Of a stretch of DNA of 64,000 nucleotides, positions 25,153-33,750 are shown piece after piece. Position numbers and translations under genes: made by a program. Position 1 is the first letter of the stretch; every line of letters starts with the position of its first letter. The DNA lies in NCBI GenBank assembly GCA_900498135.1, contig LR026961.1:1180520-1244519 (forward strand), given 5' to 3'. The DNA is from an uncultured Desulfatiglans sp. (GTDB lineage Bacteria > Desulfobacterota > DSM-4660 > Desulfatiglandales > Desulfatiglandaceae). A model generated the notes under the pieces. The model was given only the letters and a program-made list of their open reading frames with translations. It was not told the origin of the DNA and did no database searches.

Positions 25153-26922
25153 TCACCCTCCGTGGCCGTTTGGAACGCTGCCTCCGCCGGTCTTTCCCCT
25201 TGTCAGTCGATCGAGGTTCTCTCTAGCGAATCCTATTCCCGGATCGATCTCCAATGCAAGCCGATAATAATGGATGGCCCGTTCCCGATCTCCCATATCG
25301 CGGTAATTGGATGCGATATTCGCATAGTCGATCGCCGAGGACGGATCCAGCTCGATAGACCGCTCGAAACACGCAATAGCCTTTTCGTGCTCCTGAAGCT
25401 TGAAATGGCAAAATCCCATCAGGTTGAACACATCCGTCCTTTCGGGATCATACCCTTCCGCTCGCCGGGCGGCCGCGATCGACTCGCTGTACCGGCCCAG
25501 TTCCTTGAGACATACCGCCGCATATACCAGGATGGTGGGAATATCCTCCTCCTTGGGATCCAGGCTCGATGCCCGCTCGAAGGCCTCGAGGGCCTCGGAA
25601 TGACGACCGGATTCGAGGTACGCCATGCCCTTGTAAAAGTGGATGTAATATCGACCGGGAAGCGCCTTCTCCATTCGATCGAGCCCCTCCAGGACCCGGA
25701 ACGGATCTCCCTTTTCGGCCATGATTTTGGCCGTAAACATCCCGACACTGGTCCCCGCCGCACGCTCCCTGAAGTGGGCGCCCGGGATGATCGTATAGAA
25801 AGCGGGCACACCCAGCCGGGGATGGGTGACATCGATCACGAGCACCTCCATCCCCCTGCCGGCCAGGGCGTCCACGCAGTTTTCGACCTCCACACGAATA
25901 TTGGCGTCCGAAAGATTCGGCAAATCACCCAGTCCGACCGCTACCCCTGGCTTGCGGATGAAGGCCGCCTCATCGAGCGTCCCGAACTTCGGCAACCCGC
26001 TCGCGACATAGTTCGAGCCGGTGTCGAAATCCCCGCCGAGCTGTGCCACCTCCGTCAGAGCCCGGCTGAGGGCCTTTTCCGGGTCGGGGGTGGTTCCCGC
26101 CGTCCAGACGATTTCACTCCTGCGGGGGAAGGTCGCCGGGTCATACGCCAGGACCCCCACCGTCGGGATACCCGTATCTAGGGAAAAATCGGACGCAACC
26201 AGTTCGATCCCGGCGGCACGGTATTTCGCAAGCATTTCTCTCACCAGCGGATCTCGCGCCGTATCGAGGTCGATCGCCGGAACCCTGAGCCTTCCTCTGC
26301 TCACGAGGCTCGAGACATGCCGCTCGACCACCTCGCACAAACCCTGGAGCAGGGCCTCTTCGACACAGTTGCCCGCAGAAGGTCCGTTGAACTCGTTGAT
26401 CGCGAAAAACCAGTCGAAGGGGATCAGCACCGCTTCTTTCCGCGTGAGATTGTACCCCCACGTCCACCTGAGAGAGAGCCGCGCGAAGATCTCCAGGGCC
26501 TTGTCCACATCCTCCGAGGTGTCGTGCACGGAGCGGGCGATCATCGCGAGCGGGACGGCGCGTTCTTTCAGATTCTCCCAGCAATCCACCACAAAATGGG
26601 CCTCGTCCCGGCAGAAACTGAAGAAGCTGAAACGCTCGGCCAGTTCCATCACAGCGCTCGCCTCTGCCTGCGCAGGTGTTCCGCCCTTGCCCATCTGTTT
26701 GCGCGTGCCGGTCACCGCCTCGGCATCCTGGCCGCAGACGCTGAAGTAAACCGGTATCCCGATGCGGCCGTTATCGATCCGGACCGTTTCGGCCAGGATG
26801 TCCAGATCGAGAGAGGCAAGCTTGCGTTTGAAACGGGCTACGGTTTCTTCCGGTGTCAGGACCTTGTCCTGGTCCAGCGTGAAATGCTTGTAGGCATCCT
26901 TTAAACTTATCGTGTAGGGCAT
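25153..26922 (-). CDS. YcaO-domain protein with C-terminal TPR repeats
   Basis: A 589-residue fusion. Residues about 60-400 form a YcaO domain: the ATP-binding stretch has KGGTPAQAEASAVMELAER with conserved Glu residues, and VEEALLQGLCEVVERH carries another. YcaO enzymes activate amide carbonyls with ATP, for azoline or thioamide formation or other modifications. Residues about 430-570 are three or four TPR repeats. No precursor peptide, dehydrogenase or TfuA gene is adjacent, so the target is unknown and may be a protein recruited by the TPRs. AGGAGG precedes the ATG. Confidence 0.85.
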   Translation of the reverse strand: MPYTISLKDAYKHFTLDQDKVLTPEETVARFKRKLASLDLDILAETVRIDNGRIGIPVYFSVCGQDAEAVTGTRKQMGKGGTPAQAEASAVMELAERFSFFSFCRDEAHFVVDCWENLKERAVPLAMIARSVHDTSEDVDKALEIFARLSLRWTWGYNLTRKEAVLIPFDWFFAINEFNGPSAGNCVEEALLQGLCEVVERHVSSLVSRGRLRVPAIDLDTARDPLVREMLAKYRAAGIELVASDFSLDTGIPTVGVLAYDPATFPRRSEIVWTAGTTPDPEKALSRALTEVAQLGGDFDTGSNYVASGLPKFGTLDEAAFIRKPGVAVGLGDLPNLSDANIRVEVENCVDALAGRGMEVLVIDVTHPRLGVPAFYTIIPGAHFRERAAGTSVGMFTAKIMAEKGDPFRVLEGLDRMEKALPGRYYIHFYKGMAYLESGRHSEALEAFERASSLDPKEEDIPTILVYAAVCLKELGRYSESIAAARRAEGYDPERTDVFNLMGFCHFKLQEHEKAIACFERSIELDPSSAIDYANIASNYRDMGDRERAIHYYRLALEIDPGIGFARENLDRLTRGKTGGGSVPNGHGG

Positions 26923-27165
26923 CGGCCTCCTATTCAGCTCACCTCTCCGAAATGGGCGCTTCCGCCGATCGCAGCCGCGATCTTTCGCCTATAGCGCTGA
27001 GGCATCGCCGGCGCGGCCCCGTGGAAATCGAGGGCGGCGGCTGGTCGGACGCACCTGTCCCTGCAGGATGCCTCCGGCGGCGCAAAAGCGGGGCGGGTCT
27101 GTTCCTGAACGAGAAGCAGTATAATGCCGGAAGGCAGCCTTGTCCATCTTCGGGAGCGACCCGCA

Positions 27166-27984
27166 TCAGTCGACCGGCCGATTCACCTTCCCGGGCAGGT
27201 ACCCTTCGAGATCGATCGAGATGTGGGTGAACCCGAGCGACCGGAAGTGCTCCACCAGCCCTGCACGGAGGCCCGGATCCAGGAACCGGTGCAGATCCTC
27301 CGGCGCCGCTTCGATCCGGGCGACCCCCACGCTGCTTCTGACACGGATCCCTGAAAAGCCCCGATCATCCAGATAGGCCTCCGCCTGCTCCACCTGTCTC
27401 AAGCCGCGTTCCGTCAGGGGCTCCCCATAGGGAATCCGGGTGGCCAGACAGGCCATGGCGGGTCTCCGCCAATTCGGAAGGCCCATACGGCCCGCCAACG
27501 CACGGATTTCCGCCTTCCCGAACCCTGCCGTCATCAGGGGCGAAAGGATTCCCTCCTCCTCCGCAGCTCGAAATCCGGGACGGAAGTCCGACAGGTCGTC
27601 CCGGTTCGCCCCGTGGGCCACGTGGGCAAGGCCGGCTTCTTCGGCGATCTCTCGAATCCGTTTGAAAAGAAGACGCTTACAGTGATAACACCGGTCGCGA
27701 TCATTGACCCTGAAGGCCTTCAGATCCATTTCCCGAGGATCGAAAACCCGTTGCGGCATCCCCAGGCGGCCCGCCATCTCCGCCGCATAGACTGTTTCTC
27801 CGCTTGAACGAATGGAGGATGCAGCCGTGGCAGCCAGCACCCGGTCCTTTCCAAGGGCGGCCTTACCGGCAGCCAGGAGCAGAGTGCTGTCCACCCCCCC
27901 GGAAAAGGCGACAACAAGAGAATCCAGCCGTTTCAGGGCGTCCAGCAGGGCCGAGAATTTATCTTCGGCCGGGATCTTGTCCAT
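27166..27984 (-). CDS. larE: ATP-dependent sulfur transferase LarE
   Basis: About 272 residues. The PP-loop AFSGGVDS near the N-terminus binds ATP for adenylation. LarE incorporates sulfur into the nickel-pincer nucleotide cofactor of lactate racemase and relatives. Three cysteines stand out: CYHC (two) and the Cys in RPAMACLATRIPYG, which aligns with the sacrificial cysteine of the Lactobacillus enzyme. The three-cysteine set suggests the [4Fe-4S] form described for some LarE proteins rather than the sacrificial form (inference). No larA, larB or larC is in the window. ATG 27984 is preferred over 28005; neither has a clear Shine-Dalgarno. Confidence 0.88.
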   Translation of the reverse strand: MDKIPAEDKFSALLDALKRLDSLVVAFSGGVDSTLLLAAGKAALGKDRVLAATAASSIRSSGETVYAAEMAGRLGMPQRVFDPREMDLKAFRVNDRDRCYHCKRLLFKRIREIAEEAGLAHVAHGANRDDLSDFRPGFRAAEEEGILSPLMTAGFGKAEIRALAGRMGLPNWRRPAMACLATRIPYGEPLTERGLRQVEQAEAYLDDRGFSGIRVRSSVGVARIEAAPEDLHRFLDPGLRAGLVEHFRSLGFTHISIDLEGYLPGKVNRPVD

Positions 27985-28420
27985 GTCCGGAGTCCGGCTC
28001 TTCATCGAGCGCTACCAGCAGATCTTCCACCTGCAAGACAAAATGTCGGGGCTGCCATTCCGTGACAAGAAACATCCTCCCCTCCAGCCTGGCAGCCTCC
28101 GAGGCAGCCCTGGCGGAAGGGGCCTCCCCCGGAGCGTCCCCTTCGGACGCCGTTTCAGCTGCGGGCGCAGCGGCTTCGTCGTCCGGCTCATCCTTTTCCT
28201 GCGGCTCCCAGGCAAACGCGACCCGCAAAGGGCAGCCCTTCTCATCCACACACGACGCGCCCGGGTGAATCCGATACACCATCCCGTTGAACAGCCGGTA
28301 GGCTATCACCACGGGGAAGCTGACCCCGTCGGATTCCCCGCTCCCCTGAACGTCCTGGACGTCGATCATCAGCAACAAAGAGACCGCGTCGCTCAAAGGC
28401 CGCACTTTCTCCGATTCCAA
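27959..28420 (-). CDS. Hypothetical protein overlapping larE
   Basis: I do not recognise this protein. The supported part begins near the TTG at 28420 or GTG at 28405 and reads through SDAVSLLLMIDVQDVQG, FPVVIAYRLFNGMVYRIHPG, then an acidic Ala/Glu/Pro linker and GRMFLVTEWQPRHFVLQVEDLL. The hydrophobic/charged pattern looks like folded protein on both sides of the linker. It overlaps the larE start by about 26 bp, as coupled genes do. The frame stays open to 28609, but that part would overlap the preceding gene. The start is uncertain and the gene could be spurious. Confidence 0.45.
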   Translation of the reverse strand: MESEKVRPLSDAVSLLLMIDVQDVQGSGESDGVSFPVVIAYRLFNGMVYRIHPGASCVDEKGCPLRVAFAWEPQEKDEPDDEAAAPAAETASEGDAPGEAPSARAASEAARLEGRMFLVTEWQPRHFVLQVEDLLVALDEEPDSGHGQDPGRR

Positions 28421-28521
28421 AAACGAAAACCTTCGGGAGGGTTTCCGGCGTGAAGGATTCTCCCGGCGGGCAGGCAAATCGCTATCTGGCTGAAGGCCCG
28501 GGGCCCCTTCGAAGAATCCTA

Positions 28522-29139
28522 TCAGTCCCCTCCGACCGGTTTCCCCGAGCTGACAGTCAAAACATCCTGGAGGGCCTTGACAAAGCGCCCGAATTCCCCG
28601 TTCCTGCAAAGGCCTCCATCCTTCCGCCCCAAGAGGGCGCGTCGCAGCCCGGCTGTCAGCTCGAGCTGCAGTCCTTTGCCGGAACGCCCGCGGTTGCAGA
28701 GGTTCATCGGGTTGACACCCGGGAACCGAGCCGACTCGCTGACCGTAAACGAGGCGGCGTTGAGCGCCTCCCGAGCGGCTTCCTTCAGCGCATCATCGCG
28801 GCCCCCAAGATAGATGCAACACTCGGGACCACGGCATCCATGAATGGAAAGGACCGATTCAGCCGCGCAGGCGAGCTCCACAGCGCAGGGTTCGTCGAAG
28901 AGATGGCTCGGGATGCGGAGAGCTGCATTCCCGGCCGTCCCTATCCCCCTGAAGCAGTAAAAGCCGTGCAGATCTCCTGCAATAGCCTCGGCCAGAGTAC
29001 CGGTACCCGGCTCTATGCCGCCCCCATGCAGTGCCATGACAAGGATGCCGGTCGGTCCGGCAGGTCTGAACCGAATGTCATAGTCCCTGCCTAAGGCCTG
29101 CTCCAGCCGCAGCACCTGAAAACTCGCATATCCCACCAT
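28522..29139 (-). CDS. Poly-gamma-glutamate hydrolase-family protein (zinc amidopeptidase-like)
   Basis: About 205 residues. LVMALHGGGIEPGTGTLAEAIAGD is the hallmark start of the phage-type poly-gamma-glutamate hydrolase family (PF05908), with the zinc-binding His and Glu. SVLSIHGCRG and YLGGRD follow, as in the family. It would cleave gamma-glutamyl bonds; the family is best known from Bacillus phages attacking PGA capsules. Here it is chromosomal, between a HEAT protein and LarE, with no phage genes around. ATG 29139 has AAGGAGAG about 9 nt upstream; the frame is open to 29148. Confidence 0.8.
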   Translation of the reverse strand: MVGYASFQVLRLEQALGRDYDIRFRPAGPTGILVMALHGGGIEPGTGTLAEAIAGDLHGFYCFRGIGTAGNAALRIPSHLFDEPCAVELACAAESVLSIHGCRGPECCIYLGGRDDALKEAAREALNAASFTVSESARFPGVNPMNLCNRGRSGKGLQLELTAGLRRALLGRKDGGLCRNGEFGRFVKALQDVLTVSSGKPVGGD

Positions 29140-29154
29140 AGGGTCCAACTCTCC

Positions 29155-29868
29155 TTATGCATGTTTTTCGGCGGACGCACGGCGCACGCGCTCGACGGCC
29201 TCCCGCGCCACTTCCCCCACACGCCAGGGACGCAGCGTACCCTCCAGAAACAGCAACACTTCACGGGCATCGGCCCGGAGCGACTCGAGCAGGGACAGTG
29301 CAGAAGAGGCCGACAACTGTCCGAGGGCCCTCGCCGCCAGCGCGCATTCCTCGGCATCGTCGCTTTGGCAGAAACCGAGAAGAGGCTCCGTTGCCTTCTG
29401 CATCAAATCCGCCCTCGTCTCCGCAGCCCGGCCTACGCCCCAGAGCGCACCCCTGCGCAACGGGCCGTATTCGAGGAAATTTCCATCTTCCCGGATATAA
29501 GAGATCAAAACCTGGTGGAATTCCACGGCCAGACCGGCGTGGACGGCAACGATCTCACCCATGCCTTCCGGACACCCCCACCCGATACCGCCCGATTCGT
29601 CGTTCAACTGCCACATCATCCGGCGAAGGATCGTCCTGGCCCCTTCCATATCTTCCCTGGCTATACGCTCGGCAACGATACCGAATCCCTGAACCGCCCG
29701 CCACTTCACAAGCGGCACGGGATGAAGAAGCAGCGAAAAAAGGGGGTTCACGGCTGTGCGCGGAGCGAGAGACGCGATGAACGCCCGGCAGGTCTTTGCA
29801 TCCATCTCGCTGAATACACGCGCCATTTCGGTCTTGATCTGTCTGGAGCGGGCGGGCTGCTTTGGCAT
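29155..29868 (-). CDS. DVU0298-type HEAT-repeat protein
   Basis: About 237 residues, almost entirely helical with HEAT-like repeats. PLVKWRAVQGFG, RGALWGVGRAAE and ALAARALGQL mark successive helices, and MMWQLNDESGGIGWGCPEGMGEIVA is a conserved loop of the DVU0298 family that I know from sulfate reducers. The role is unknown; HEAT scaffolds usually bind proteins. The ATG at 29868 is preferred over GTG 29883. The gamma-PGA-hydrolase-like gene starts 15 bp after its stop, so they are likely co-transcribed. Confidence 0.75.
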   Translation of the reverse strand: MPKQPARSRQIKTEMARVFSEMDAKTCRAFIASLAPRTAVNPLFSLLLHPVPLVKWRAVQGFGIVAERIAREDMEGARTILRRMMWQLNDESGGIGWGCPEGMGEIVAVHAGLAVEFHQVLISYIREDGNFLEYGPLRRGALWGVGRAAETRADLMQKATEPLLGFCQSDDAEECALAARALGQLSASSALSLLESLRADAREVLLFLEGTLRPWRVGEVAREAVERVRRASAEKHA

Positions 29869-29922
29869 GGGTTCGGGATTCACATCGAGACCAGCCTGAT
29901 CGGTCCTGAGTGGTTTCTGGGA

Positions 29923-30294
29923 TTAAGAGGCCTCCAACACATCTTCGACACCCTGGAGGAACTCGTTCAAGGCGAAGGGCTTCGTAAATATCTTACGGGC
30001 ACCCAGCGCCTCGGCCAGGTGAAGATAGGTCTCGGGACCCAGTTGACCTCCGCCGGATATGGCGATAATCTTGACTGCGGGAAAGTCCCGGCGCAGATCG
30101 CGAATTGTTTCGATGCCTTCTTTTCCGGGCATGAGAACATCCGTAATCACCAGATCGGCCGGATTTTGACGGTACCGCGCGATCCCTACGTTCCCGTCAT
30201 CGGCATCATCCACGTCGTAGCCCTTCATTTCCAGGAACTGTCTCAACATGGACCGGATCTGGTCGTCGTCGTCTATAATCAAAATGCGCGGCAT
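29923..30294 (-). CDS. Stand-alone response regulator receiver
   Basis: A 123-residue CheY-like receiver with no output domain. The acidic pocket IIDDDD, the phospho-acceptor Asp in VITDVLMPG, the Ser of ISGGG in the Thr/Ser position, and Lys in FTKPF are all present. ATG 30294 (MPRILIID) is preferred; a GTG at 30321 would add nine residues. There is no histidine kinase in the window, so its partner is encoded elsewhere. It is divergent from the DUF2889-like operon. Confidence 0.9.
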   Translation of the reverse strand: MPRILIIDDDDQIRSMLRQFLEMKGYDVDDADDGNVGIARYRQNPADLVITDVLMPGKEGIETIRDLRRDFPAVKIIAISGGGQLGPETYLHLAEALGARKIFTKPFALNEFLQGVEDVLEAS

Positions 30295-30536
30295 GGCCTC
30301 GTTGCTTTCCTGAGATCTCACCTATTTGATATCCATATTTCAACCGTTTCAGGATAGCGGCCTCGCCGAGGCGGGTCAAGCAGAATTGGGAGGGGCAGCC
30401 CTCTCAAAACATCCCGGCCCCTGCCGGGACAATCCGGACAAATCCGCCAAAGGCCCCTTGACAACCGATTGGACCGGGGAGTATAGGGTCTTTTAGTCAG
30501 CCTGGCCGCTCACGTTCCACTTTGGAGGCAATCCTG

Positions 30537-32307: not shown

Positions 32308-32319
32308 GGAGTGACCTCC

Positions 32320-33750
32320 ATGAAACCGCAACGTGACTGGGAAAAAATAATTCGGCGGCTCGAACTGCTCCTGCGCCTCAAATCCTTCCCCGTAGGGATG
32401 AAACTGCTCGAGAAGAAAGAGGAGTTGGACACCATTCCATTTTTGCGCCGCATGGGCCACAAGGTGACCTTCTGCCAGATGACCAATCTGGTGCGCAACT
32501 TCGACTGGACGGTCGGTGCCTCCCGGGAGGACTTCATCTATATTTCCTGCCCCTCCATTCTGGGCTTCACCGATATCCCCCAACTATACAAAGACGGGAC
32601 ATTCCGGAGCATCGTCTGGGTAAGGACGCGCGAGGACGGAAAGCGCTACGAGGCCTCGGTCCCGCGCATCCCCCTGGGTCGATTCGAGGCCGTCGCCCTG
32701 GCGCCGCAGGTCTACAAGCCCTTCGAACCCGACATGGTTCTCATCTACGCCAATCCGGCGCAGATGATGCTTCTCATCAACGCCCTGCAGTTCGACGACT
32801 ACGAAGTCATGACCTTTCACTGCGTCGGGGAATCCAGTTGTTCCGATGCCATCGCACGGTGCTTCCTGACCGGCAAGCCGTCCCTGACCATCCCCTGCTA
32901 CGGTGAGAGACGCTACGGCCACGCCCAGGACGACGAACTGGTCATGGCGCTGCCGCCCGAAAGCCTTGAAAAGGCCCAGAGGAATCTCGAGACGCTTTAC
33001 CGCAAGGGCATTCGCTACCCCATCAGCTATGCCGGAGCCGAACTGGACGTGACGAGCGGCTTCCCAGGCGCTTATGGGGGCCTTGACCAGATCCAGGAAA
33101 TCCGGGGCGACGACAACCGCCTTCTTTTGGGCGTGACAGGCGGCATCGGCAGCGGAAAAAGCACGGTGGCCGCCATGCTGGAAGAACTCGGGGCGCCGAT
33201 CATCGACTTCGATGTCCTCGCCCGCGAAGTCGTCCAACCGGGGAAACCCGCCTACAACGAGATCGTGGAATTCTTCGGACGACAGGTCCTGCAGCCTGAC
33301 GGCCAACTGGATCGCAAGGCCCTGTCCAAGATCGTCTTCCGGGACTTCGAAAAGCGCAAGCGCCTCGAGTCCTTTACCCATCCTCGAATCTTCGAGGCCT
33401 ACCACCGCGAGGTCGAACGGCTGGCCAGCGAAAACCCCGGCGCCGTCATCCAGGTGGTTATCCCGCTTCTGATAGAACTCAACCTGCAGCACCGGTTTCA
33501 CAAGCTGCTGGTGGTCTATGTCCCGGACAACGTCCAGGTCGAACGGCTGGCCGCGCGGGACAACATCAGCCTCGAGGAGGCCGCCAACATTCTGAAATCC
33601 CAGCTCCCCATCGATGAAAAAGTCGCCTATGCCGACTATGTCATCCGCAATGACACATCGATCGAGGACACGCGCCGGCAGGTGGAAGAGCTCTGGAAGT
33701 CCCTGCAGACGCTCCAGGCGGAAAGACTCGCCTCCAAGGGCGGGTGCTGA
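32320..33750 (+). CDS. DUF169 domain fused to dephospho-CoA kinase (CoaE)
   Basis: A 476-residue in-frame fusion. Residues about 1-255 are a DUF169 domain: FPVGMKLLEKKEEL, TFCQMTNLVRN, CVGESSCSDAIARCF and CYGERRYG give its conserved cysteines. Residues about 268-476 form a full-length dephospho-CoA kinase with the P-loop GVTGGIGSGKST, DFDVLAREVV and THPRI. CoaE makes CoA from dephospho-CoA and ATP. DUF169 proteins are common in anaerobes and of unknown function. ATG 32320 has AAGGAG 8 nt upstream; the GTG at 32311 lies inside that site. No frameshift or stop lies between the domains. Confidence 0.88.
   Translation: MKPQRDWEKIIRRLELLLRLKSFPVGMKLLEKKEELDTIPFLRRMGHKVTFCQMTNLVRNFDWTVGASREDFIYISCPSILGFTDIPQLYKDGTFRSIVWVRTREDGKRYEASVPRIPLGRFEAVALAPQVYKPFEPDMVLIYANPAQMMLLINALQFDDYEVMTFHCVGESSCSDAIARCFLTGKPSLTIPCYGERRYGHAQDDELVMALPPESLEKAQRNLETLYRKGIRYPISYAGAELDVTSGFPGAYGGLDQIQEIRGDDNRLLLGVTGGIGSGKSTVAAMLEELGAPIIDFDVLAREVVQPGKPAYNEIVEFFGRQVLQPDGQLDRKALSKIVFRDFEKRKRLESFTHPRIFEAYHREVERLASENPGAVIQVVIPLLIELNLQHRFHKLLVVYVPDNVQVERLAARDNISLEEAANILKSQLPIDEKVAYADYVIRNDTSIEDTRRQVEELWKSLQTLQAERLASKGGC

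What the first reader, a model, noticed from the sequence alone, without database searches (positions are those of the whole stretch)
28522..29139. Poly-gamma-glutamate hydrolase-family protein with no phage or capsule context
The family is known mainly from Bacillus phages. A chromosomal copy in an anaerobic Gram-negative, next to a HEAT scaffold and LarE, suggests another gamma-glutamyl substrate such as folate polyglutamate, F420-like tails or glutathione-type thiols.
Basis: inference. Interest (0 to 1): 0.5.

Follow-up and report, generated by a model that had tools for sequence, protein, structure and literature searches.

The report
Chromosomal poly-gamma-glutamate hydrolase family gene
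This is a real but fairly ordinary bacterial gene for a zinc enzyme that probably cuts gamma-linked glutamate chains inside the cell; its neighbours do not reveal its substrate, though one usually conserved pocket residue is changed in this genus.

Summary
The gene is real but on the minus strand (ATG 29139 to stop 28522, 205 aa). It is a clear PF05908 (PghP, M86) protein by sequence and fold, with all three zinc ligands, the catalytic glutamate and the substrate arginine. It is under purifying selection (dN/dS 0.12), and no structural phage genes were found beside it. The LarE/HEAT argument fails: that block, with YcaO, also exists without this gene, and over 91 distinct loci no neighbour is constant. 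F420 tails (no CofE) and glutathione (two ligase families absent) are unlikely substrates; folate polyglutamate stays open because FolC is present. No signal peptide fits before the fold, so it should act in the cytoplasm on L-gamma-glutamyl oligomers, imported or from folates. One feature is new: PghL's His77, kept in the other 89 genome-contig rows and 75 of 80 viral rows, is Arg in both species sampled of this genus, and Thr79 is Pro. That suggests altered specificity, or lost activity on gamma-PGA. No activity was measured. Low to moderate interest.

The parts
28522..29139 (-). PF05908 / PghP-family protein, 205 aa (the finding)
29011..29028 (-). HGGGIE motif: zinc ligands H38 and E43 (PghL H41, E46)
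   Evidence: aligned; ligands as given in PMC6506827
28909..28917 (-). R75-I76-P77: substrate positions His77 and Thr79 of PghL, changed here
   Evidence: role of the positions from PMC6506827
28840..28842 (-). third zinc ligand H100 (PghL H102)
28660..28662 (-). catalytic E160 (PghL E165)
28642..28644 (-). substrate-anchoring R166 (PghL R171)
29155..29883 (-). HEAT-repeat protein, NCBIfam DVU0298 family; neighbour, not part of a shown system
29923..30321 (-). single-domain response regulator; neighbour
27962..28468 (-). remnant of a DUF4340 protein (C-terminal part only), beside the junction to sister species G001
28463..28468 (.). junction, 6 bases shared by both sides, where about 5.5 kb of G001 is absent
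27166..28005 (-). LarE sacrificial sulfur transferase; goes with YcaO rather than with PghP
25153..26922 (-). YcaO-TPR protein; neighbour

Best explanation
A chromosomal, cytoplasmic zinc peptidase of the PghP family. Shown: family membership, predicted fold, zinc triad H38/E43/H100, E160 and R166, purifying selection, no structural phage genes nearby. Inferred: it cuts L-gamma-glutamyl bonds as PghL does (zinc polarises the gamma-carbonyl, E160 helps, R166 holds a substrate carboxylate). With no room for an export signal it should work inside the cell on short L-gamma-glutamyl oligomers, most likely imported fragments of gamma-PGA made by other organisms, as an accessory gene gained and lost often. 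In this genus His77 has become Arg and Thr79 Pro, so preference within gamma-glutamyl substrates is probably shifted.
For: PF05908 E 9.5e-47; only PDB sequence matches at E up to 1 are 21dc, 5onl, 5onj, 3a9l; model pLDDT 88.8, pTM 0.88; best folds 21dc, 5onj, 3a9l at TM 0.88-0.90. Zinc triad, N146 and E160 kept in 90 of 90 genome-contig and 80 of 80 viral rows; R166 in 89 of 90 and 77 of 80. dN/dS 0.119 against the sister species; neighbours CoaE 0.125, YcaO 0.123, RR 0.063, HEAT 0.210, LarE 0.256. Pfam match starts at residue 4 and the stop-to-stop frame is only 210 codons, so no signal peptide fits. Patchy: 20 of 61 relatives, 32 of 394 in the phylum; also on 40 of 72,556 plasmid records. 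No PgsB match in the own genome. PghL is an endo-hydrolase releasing L-glutamate oligomers (PMC6506827, passages).
Against: No activity, transport or expression data. His78Ala and Thr80Ala of PghP (the positions changed here) are reported as deleterious and nearly abolishing (PMC6506827), so the window protein may not cut gamma-PGA at all. Import of gamma-glutamyl oligomers is assumed, not tested. PgsB passes its cut-off in 3 of 20 carriers and 0 of 41 non-carriers among relatives, a hint (two of the three are one genus) that in some relatives the substrate is home-made.
Confidence: 0.45

Rival explanations
1. It trims poly-gamma-glutamate tails of folates inside the cell, a bacterial analogue of gamma-glutamyl hydrolase.
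For: Folate tails are all-L gamma-linked (recalled); of the ligases looked for, FolC is the one found in the genome (PgsB, CofE, GCS2, Glu_cys_ligase without match). Cytoplasmic location fits.
Against: FolC is widespread (11 of 14 control genomes) while the hydrolase is patchy (20 of 61; 32 of 394). FolC lies about 325 kb away. No paper in the library holds both 'PghP' and 'folate'.
Confidence: 0.2
2. It has lost gamma-PGA hydrolysis in this genus and does something else (another gamma-glutamyl or carboxylate substrate, or binding only).
For: His77 to Arg in both species of the genus and in none of the other 19 HMM-found matches of the relatives, nor in 14 of 14 further phylum loci read; long branch of 0.76 to this genus; the two lowest PF05908 scores among the relatives' matches. 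In carboxypeptidase A an Arg occupies roughly this space (PMC6506827), so an Arg could still serve catalysis with other substrates.
Against: Zinc ligands, E160 and R166 are kept and selection is purifying. Thr79 is not Thr in 22 of the other 89 genome-contig rows, so it is not strict, and Thr168 and Ser74 vary too. 5 of 80 viral rows also lack the His (3 Ser, 2 Tyr).
Confidence: 0.25
3. Part of a LarE/YcaO/HEAT sulfur or thioamide pathway handling gamma-glutamyl thiols.
For: Close together in window and sister species; HEAT-PghP-LarE-YcaO in order in G018; PghP and YcaO on one contig, up to 14 kb apart, in 6 of 20 carriers, and PghP next to LarE in G015.
Against: YcaO-TPR is in 40 of 61 genomes, PF05908 in 20; LarE goes with YcaO in 9 loci from PF05908-free genomes; of 91 distinct PghP loci only 6, all of this family, have LarE within 9 kb, though many contigs are short; two GSH ligase families absent.
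Confidence: 0.05
4. A prophage remnant.
For: The family has a PHROG (phrog_4175) and 214 of 50,697 phage records hold a homologue.
Against: PHROG scans of 15 window ORFs between 17471 and 38171 gave no capsid, tail, portal or integrase family; they did match families of unknown function (phrog_33138, phrog_731, phrog_7590 and others), phrog_139 (nucleotide kinase, on CoaE) and phrog_25833 (dehydrogenase). Not every window ORF was scanned. Phage hits are Bacillus 138, Staphylococcus 74, Listeria 1 and 'Phage f2b1', all under 60% identity. 75 of 80 viral rows lie across a fully supported branch from the window. Gene order is kept in the sister species apart from the 5.5 kb.
Confidence: 0.03

Closest known systems
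PghL (YndL) of Bacillus subtilis, PDB 5onl/5onj
   Same: Same fold (TM 0.88-0.89), zinc triad, E165, R171, N151, N73 and Ser80 equivalents
   Different: 32% identity in the structural alignment; His77 to Arg, Thr79 to Pro, Thr168 to Ala, Ser74 to Ala; host chromosome of a likely Thermodesulfobacteriota, not a prophage
PghP of phage phiNIT1, PDB 3a9l, MEROPS M86.001
   Same: Same fold (TM 0.88-0.89) and metal site
   Different: 28% identity; phage gene; His78 and Thr80, which mutagenesis found important (PMC6506827), are changed here
Chromosomal PghP-like genes of non-Bacillales (Mamberti et al. 2015, PMC4497714; abstract and sections 15 and 17 seen)
   Same: Chromosomal, outside predicted prophages, mostly without pgsB
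   Different: This genus carries the Arg variant, which none of the other genome-contig rows examined here has; the sequences of that paper were not compared one by one
Carboxypeptidase A, and the Atu2144 protein 2odf
   Same: Distant fold likeness (2odf TMq 0.49-0.53); an Arg in about the His77 place in carboxypeptidase A (PMC6506827)
   Different: Different families, no sequence match

Membership tests
PF05908 Gamma_PGA_hydro / PghP family (M86) | profile score over the curated cut-off | tested here: met
   159.4 bits against 22
PF05908 Gamma_PGA_hydro / PghP family (M86) | fold of PghP/PghL | tested here: met
   TM 0.88-0.90 to 21dc, 5onj, 3a9l from a predicted model of pLDDT 88.8
PF05908 Gamma_PGA_hydro / PghP family (M86) | zinc ligands His, Glu, His | tested here: met
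   H38, E43, H100
PF05908 Gamma_PGA_hydro / PghP family (M86) | catalytic Glu165 and substrate Arg171 | tested here: met
   E160, R166
PF05908 Gamma_PGA_hydro / PghP family (M86) | substrate residues His77 and Thr79 | tested here: not met
   R75 and P77; Thr79 varies in the genome-contig rows, His77 does not outside this genus. This is a feature of the characterised enzymes, not of the sequence family as Pfam defines it
PF05908 Gamma_PGA_hydro / PghP family (M86) | hydrolysis of gamma-PGA | not testable with these tools
   no assay; therefore filed as a member of the sequence family, not as a proven gamma-PGA hydrolase
Gamma-PGA producer system (pgsBCA) | PgsB synthase in the genome | tested here: not met
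   TIGR04012 no match in G000
F420 polyglutamate metabolism | CofE ligase | tested here: not met
   0 of 61 genomes; three archaeal controls ring
Glutathione metabolism | glutamate-cysteine ligase | tested here: not met
   PF04107 and PF04262 absent from G000; other ligase families not tested
Folate polyglutamate turnover | FolC present | tested here: met
   TIGR01499 406.5 bits; says only that the substrate can exist

The most novel reading that the evidence does not exclude
In this genus a PghP-family depolymerase has been turned, by replacing the substrate-binding His with Arg (and Thr with Pro) while keeping the zinc site, into an intracellular enzyme for another gamma-glutamyl substrate such as folate polyglutamate, which would be a bacterial zinc folylpolyglutamate hydrolase.
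Probability: 0.1. Interest if true: 0.55.

Novelty: new member of a known kind. Interest (0 to 1): 0.2.

Why it matters
Chromosomal PghP-like genes are widespread, and I found no proven role for them outside phages and Bacillales in the papers seen. A genus with a natural replacement at the substrate His, but with the gene kept under purifying selection, gives a cheap test of whether these enzymes have moved to other gamma-glutamyl substrates.

Tried and rejected
LarE/HEAT as functional partners: rejected, because the block exists without PghP and 91 distinct loci show no constant neighbour; the commonest is an ABC ATPase cluster within 9 kb in 16 of 91 (its member in L022 is ABC_tran), which is a large family.

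F420 tails and glutathione: rejected on missing ligases (two GSH ligase families only). Home-made gamma-PGA: no PgsB match in the genome; in the phylum PgsB passes its cut-off in 2 of 394 genomes (96 have weaker matches at E up to 0.001, a family that cross-matches other Mur-type ligases by recall), and one of the two, G004, has PF05908.

Gene fusion as a clue: in another family of the phylum PF05908 is fused to (G156) or overlaps the end of (G127) a protein with an AAA_33 domain. Homologues of its N-terminal part are in 46 of 61 relatives; in the own genome the copy lies about 2.7 Mb from PghP. Of the loci compared only L264 and L265 have it near PghP, so it was not used.

Literature: 'poly-gamma-glutamate hydrolase' with 'YcaO' 0 papers, with 'Desulfo' 0, 'PghP' with 'folate' 0, 'LarE' with 'YcaO' 0, DVU0298 1 paper, listing only, DUF867 6 papers, of which only PMC4497714 was opened, 'poly-gamma-glutamate hydrolase' with 'zinc' 8 papers, two opened. 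The library lacks most subscription papers.

Weak points: the 80 named genome loci and the 80 viral loci were found with two peptide patterns, one of which contains the His, so the count of His is partly chosen. The HMM-found sets are not: His in 19 of 21 matches of the relatives, both exceptions being this genus, and in 14 of 14 loci read of the 23 phylum carriers outside the relatives. 10 duplicate loci were dropped before the 91. The tree is a quick one rooted at the midpoint. Gene calls were chosen by conservation because long shadow ORFs misled a first try.

Full report
What is there. The finding's coordinates hold an open frame on the minus strand, ATG 29139 to stop 28522, 205 aa. It matches PF05908 at E 9.5e-47 and phrog_4175 at 2.6e-23, and no NCBIfam model at E up to 0.01. 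Its only sequence relatives in the PDB at E up to 1 are the phage and B. subtilis poly-gamma-glutamate hydrolases 21dc, 5onl, 5onj and 3a9l. An AlphaFold2 model from 12 aligned sequences has pLDDT 88.8 and pTM 0.88, and its three best folds are those hydrolases at TM 0.88-0.90. Against the sister species G001 the gene is 96.6% identical with dN/dS 0.119; neighbours give RR 0.063, YcaO 0.123, CoaE 0.125, HEAT 0.210, LarE 0.256. It is a gene under selection, not chance.

Active site. PMC6506827 (passages and sections 7, 8 and 9) gives for PghL the zinc ligands His41, Glu46, His102, the catalytic Glu165, and substrate contacts of the side chains Asn73, Ser74, His77, Thr79, Ser80, Asn151, Thr168 and Arg171; Arg171Ser abolished cleavage, and in PghP alanine at His78 was deleterious and at Thr80 nearly abolished activity. 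Here the zinc triad (H38, E43, H100), E160, N146, S78, N71 and R166 are kept; His77 is R75, Thr79 is P77, Thr168 is A163, Ser74 is A72. The His is kept in 89 of 90 other genome-contig rows, the exception being the same genus, and in 75 of 80 viral rows. Those rows were partly found by a pattern with the His. Among loci found by profile without regard to it, it is His in 19 of 21 matches of the relatives, the two exceptions being the window genome and its sister, and in all 14 further phylum loci read, of 23 such carriers. Thr79, Thr168 and Ser74 vary widely in the genome-contig rows. So the His to Arg change is specific to this genus as far as sampled; the others are not remarkable. A histidine stands one place after Ser78 here, as in a few other rows (L105, L110), and might partly compensate (inference).

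Place in the cell. The Pfam match begins at residue 4 and the frame is only 210 codons from stop to stop, so no export signal precedes the fold; a cytoplasmic protein is the simplest reading. In some relatives the open frame reaches further upstream, and their starts were not settled.

Distribution. PF05908 is in 20 of 61 relatives and 32 of 394 phylum genomes. In a tree of 172 rows, 75 of 80 viral rows, B. subtilis YndL and one Bacillota contig (L121) lie across a fully supported branch from the side that holds the window, which has five viral rows. The phage collection has 214 of 50,697 records with a homologue: Bacillus 138, Staphylococcus 74, Listeria 1 and one named Phage f2b1; the plasmid collection has 40 of 72,556. 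Mamberti et al. 2015 (PMC4497714) already reported such genes in 53 further bacterial genera besides the main ones, no prophage co-localisation in 55 species tested, and pgsB with only 13% of the non-Bacillales cases.

Neighbourhood. From high to low coordinate the minus-strand genes are a response regulator, HEAT (DVU0298 family), PghP, a DUF4340 remnant, LarE and YcaO-TPR. In G001 about 5.5 kb lie between PghP and the matching DUF4340 end: an ABC ATPase, a permease-like ORF, an ABC_transp_aux protein, transposase-like ORFs (recognised by eye, not tested) and the start of DUF4340; the window lacks this, with a junction at 28463-28468 sharing 6 bases. G018, of another genus, has HEAT-PghP-LarE-YcaO followed by the same ABC and DUF4340 clusters, so loss in the window is the likelier direction (inference). 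PghP and YcaO share a contig in 6 of 20 carriers, up to 14 kb apart, and G015 has PghP beside LarE. But YcaO-TPR is in 40 of 61 genomes, and LarE lies within 1.5 kb of it in 21 of the 30 loci examined (of 41 matches; one of the 21 is a 50-aa fragment and some loci are cut by contig ends); 9 of the 21 are from genomes without PF05908. HEAT is in 48 of 61 genomes and lies within 4 kb of YcaO in G013, G031 and G032, which lack PF05908 (these three genomes are 63-83% complete, and in G013 the HEAT match is in two pieces). PghP is thus best read as a passenger beside an older block. Over 91 distinct loci no neighbour is constant; LarE is within 9 kb in 6, all of this family.

Candidate substrates. 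PgsB: no match in the own genome; over its cut-off in G004, G005 and G025, all carriers, so 3 of 20 carriers and 0 of 41 others; in the phylum 2 of 394, one of them a carrier. CofE: 0 of 61. GCS2 and Glu_cys_ligase: none in the own genome. FolC: present. This leaves imported gamma-glutamyl oligomers or folate tails as the main candidates. The patchy distribution favours an environmental substrate; the cytoplasmic location and FolC favour folates; the changed His argues against plain gamma-PGA in this genus. None of this is decisive.

Verdict. A new member of a known family with one genus-specific pocket change, in an uninformative neighbourhood. 

Noticed in passing
window 27962-28468: DUF4340 C-terminal remnant at a junction with 6 bases of shared sequence; sister species G001 keeps a 5.5 kb ABC transporter cluster here, with transposase-like ORFs in it (L022 14023-14884; by eye).
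   Followed up: partly
L264 1471-3714; L265 390-2617: In another family of the phylum PF05908 is fused to, or overlaps the end of, a large protein with an AAA_33 domain; the fused form is 747 aa.
   Followed up: partly
window 25153-28005: YcaO-TPR and LarE form a recurrent pair (21 of 30 loci), at times with a DVU0298-family HEAT gene nearby; no paper in the library holds both 'LarE' and 'YcaO'. LarE as a sulfur donor for a YcaO thioamide enzyme is a thought worth testing.
   Followed up: partly
P0001 residues 102 and 148: Cys148 (Asn-x-Cys-Asn) is in 88 of 90 genome-contig rows but 24 of 80 viral rows, and Cys102 after the third zinc ligand in 59 of 90 against 2 of 80: a signature of the chromosomal branch, of unknown meaning.
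   Followed up: no
L068, L073, L089, L109: In four loci PF05908 is followed directly by an RNase_H_2 (PF13482) protein on the same strand.
   Followed up: no
window 32311-33750: A fusion of DUF169 (COG2043) and dephospho-CoA kinase CoaE in one open frame.
   Followed up: no
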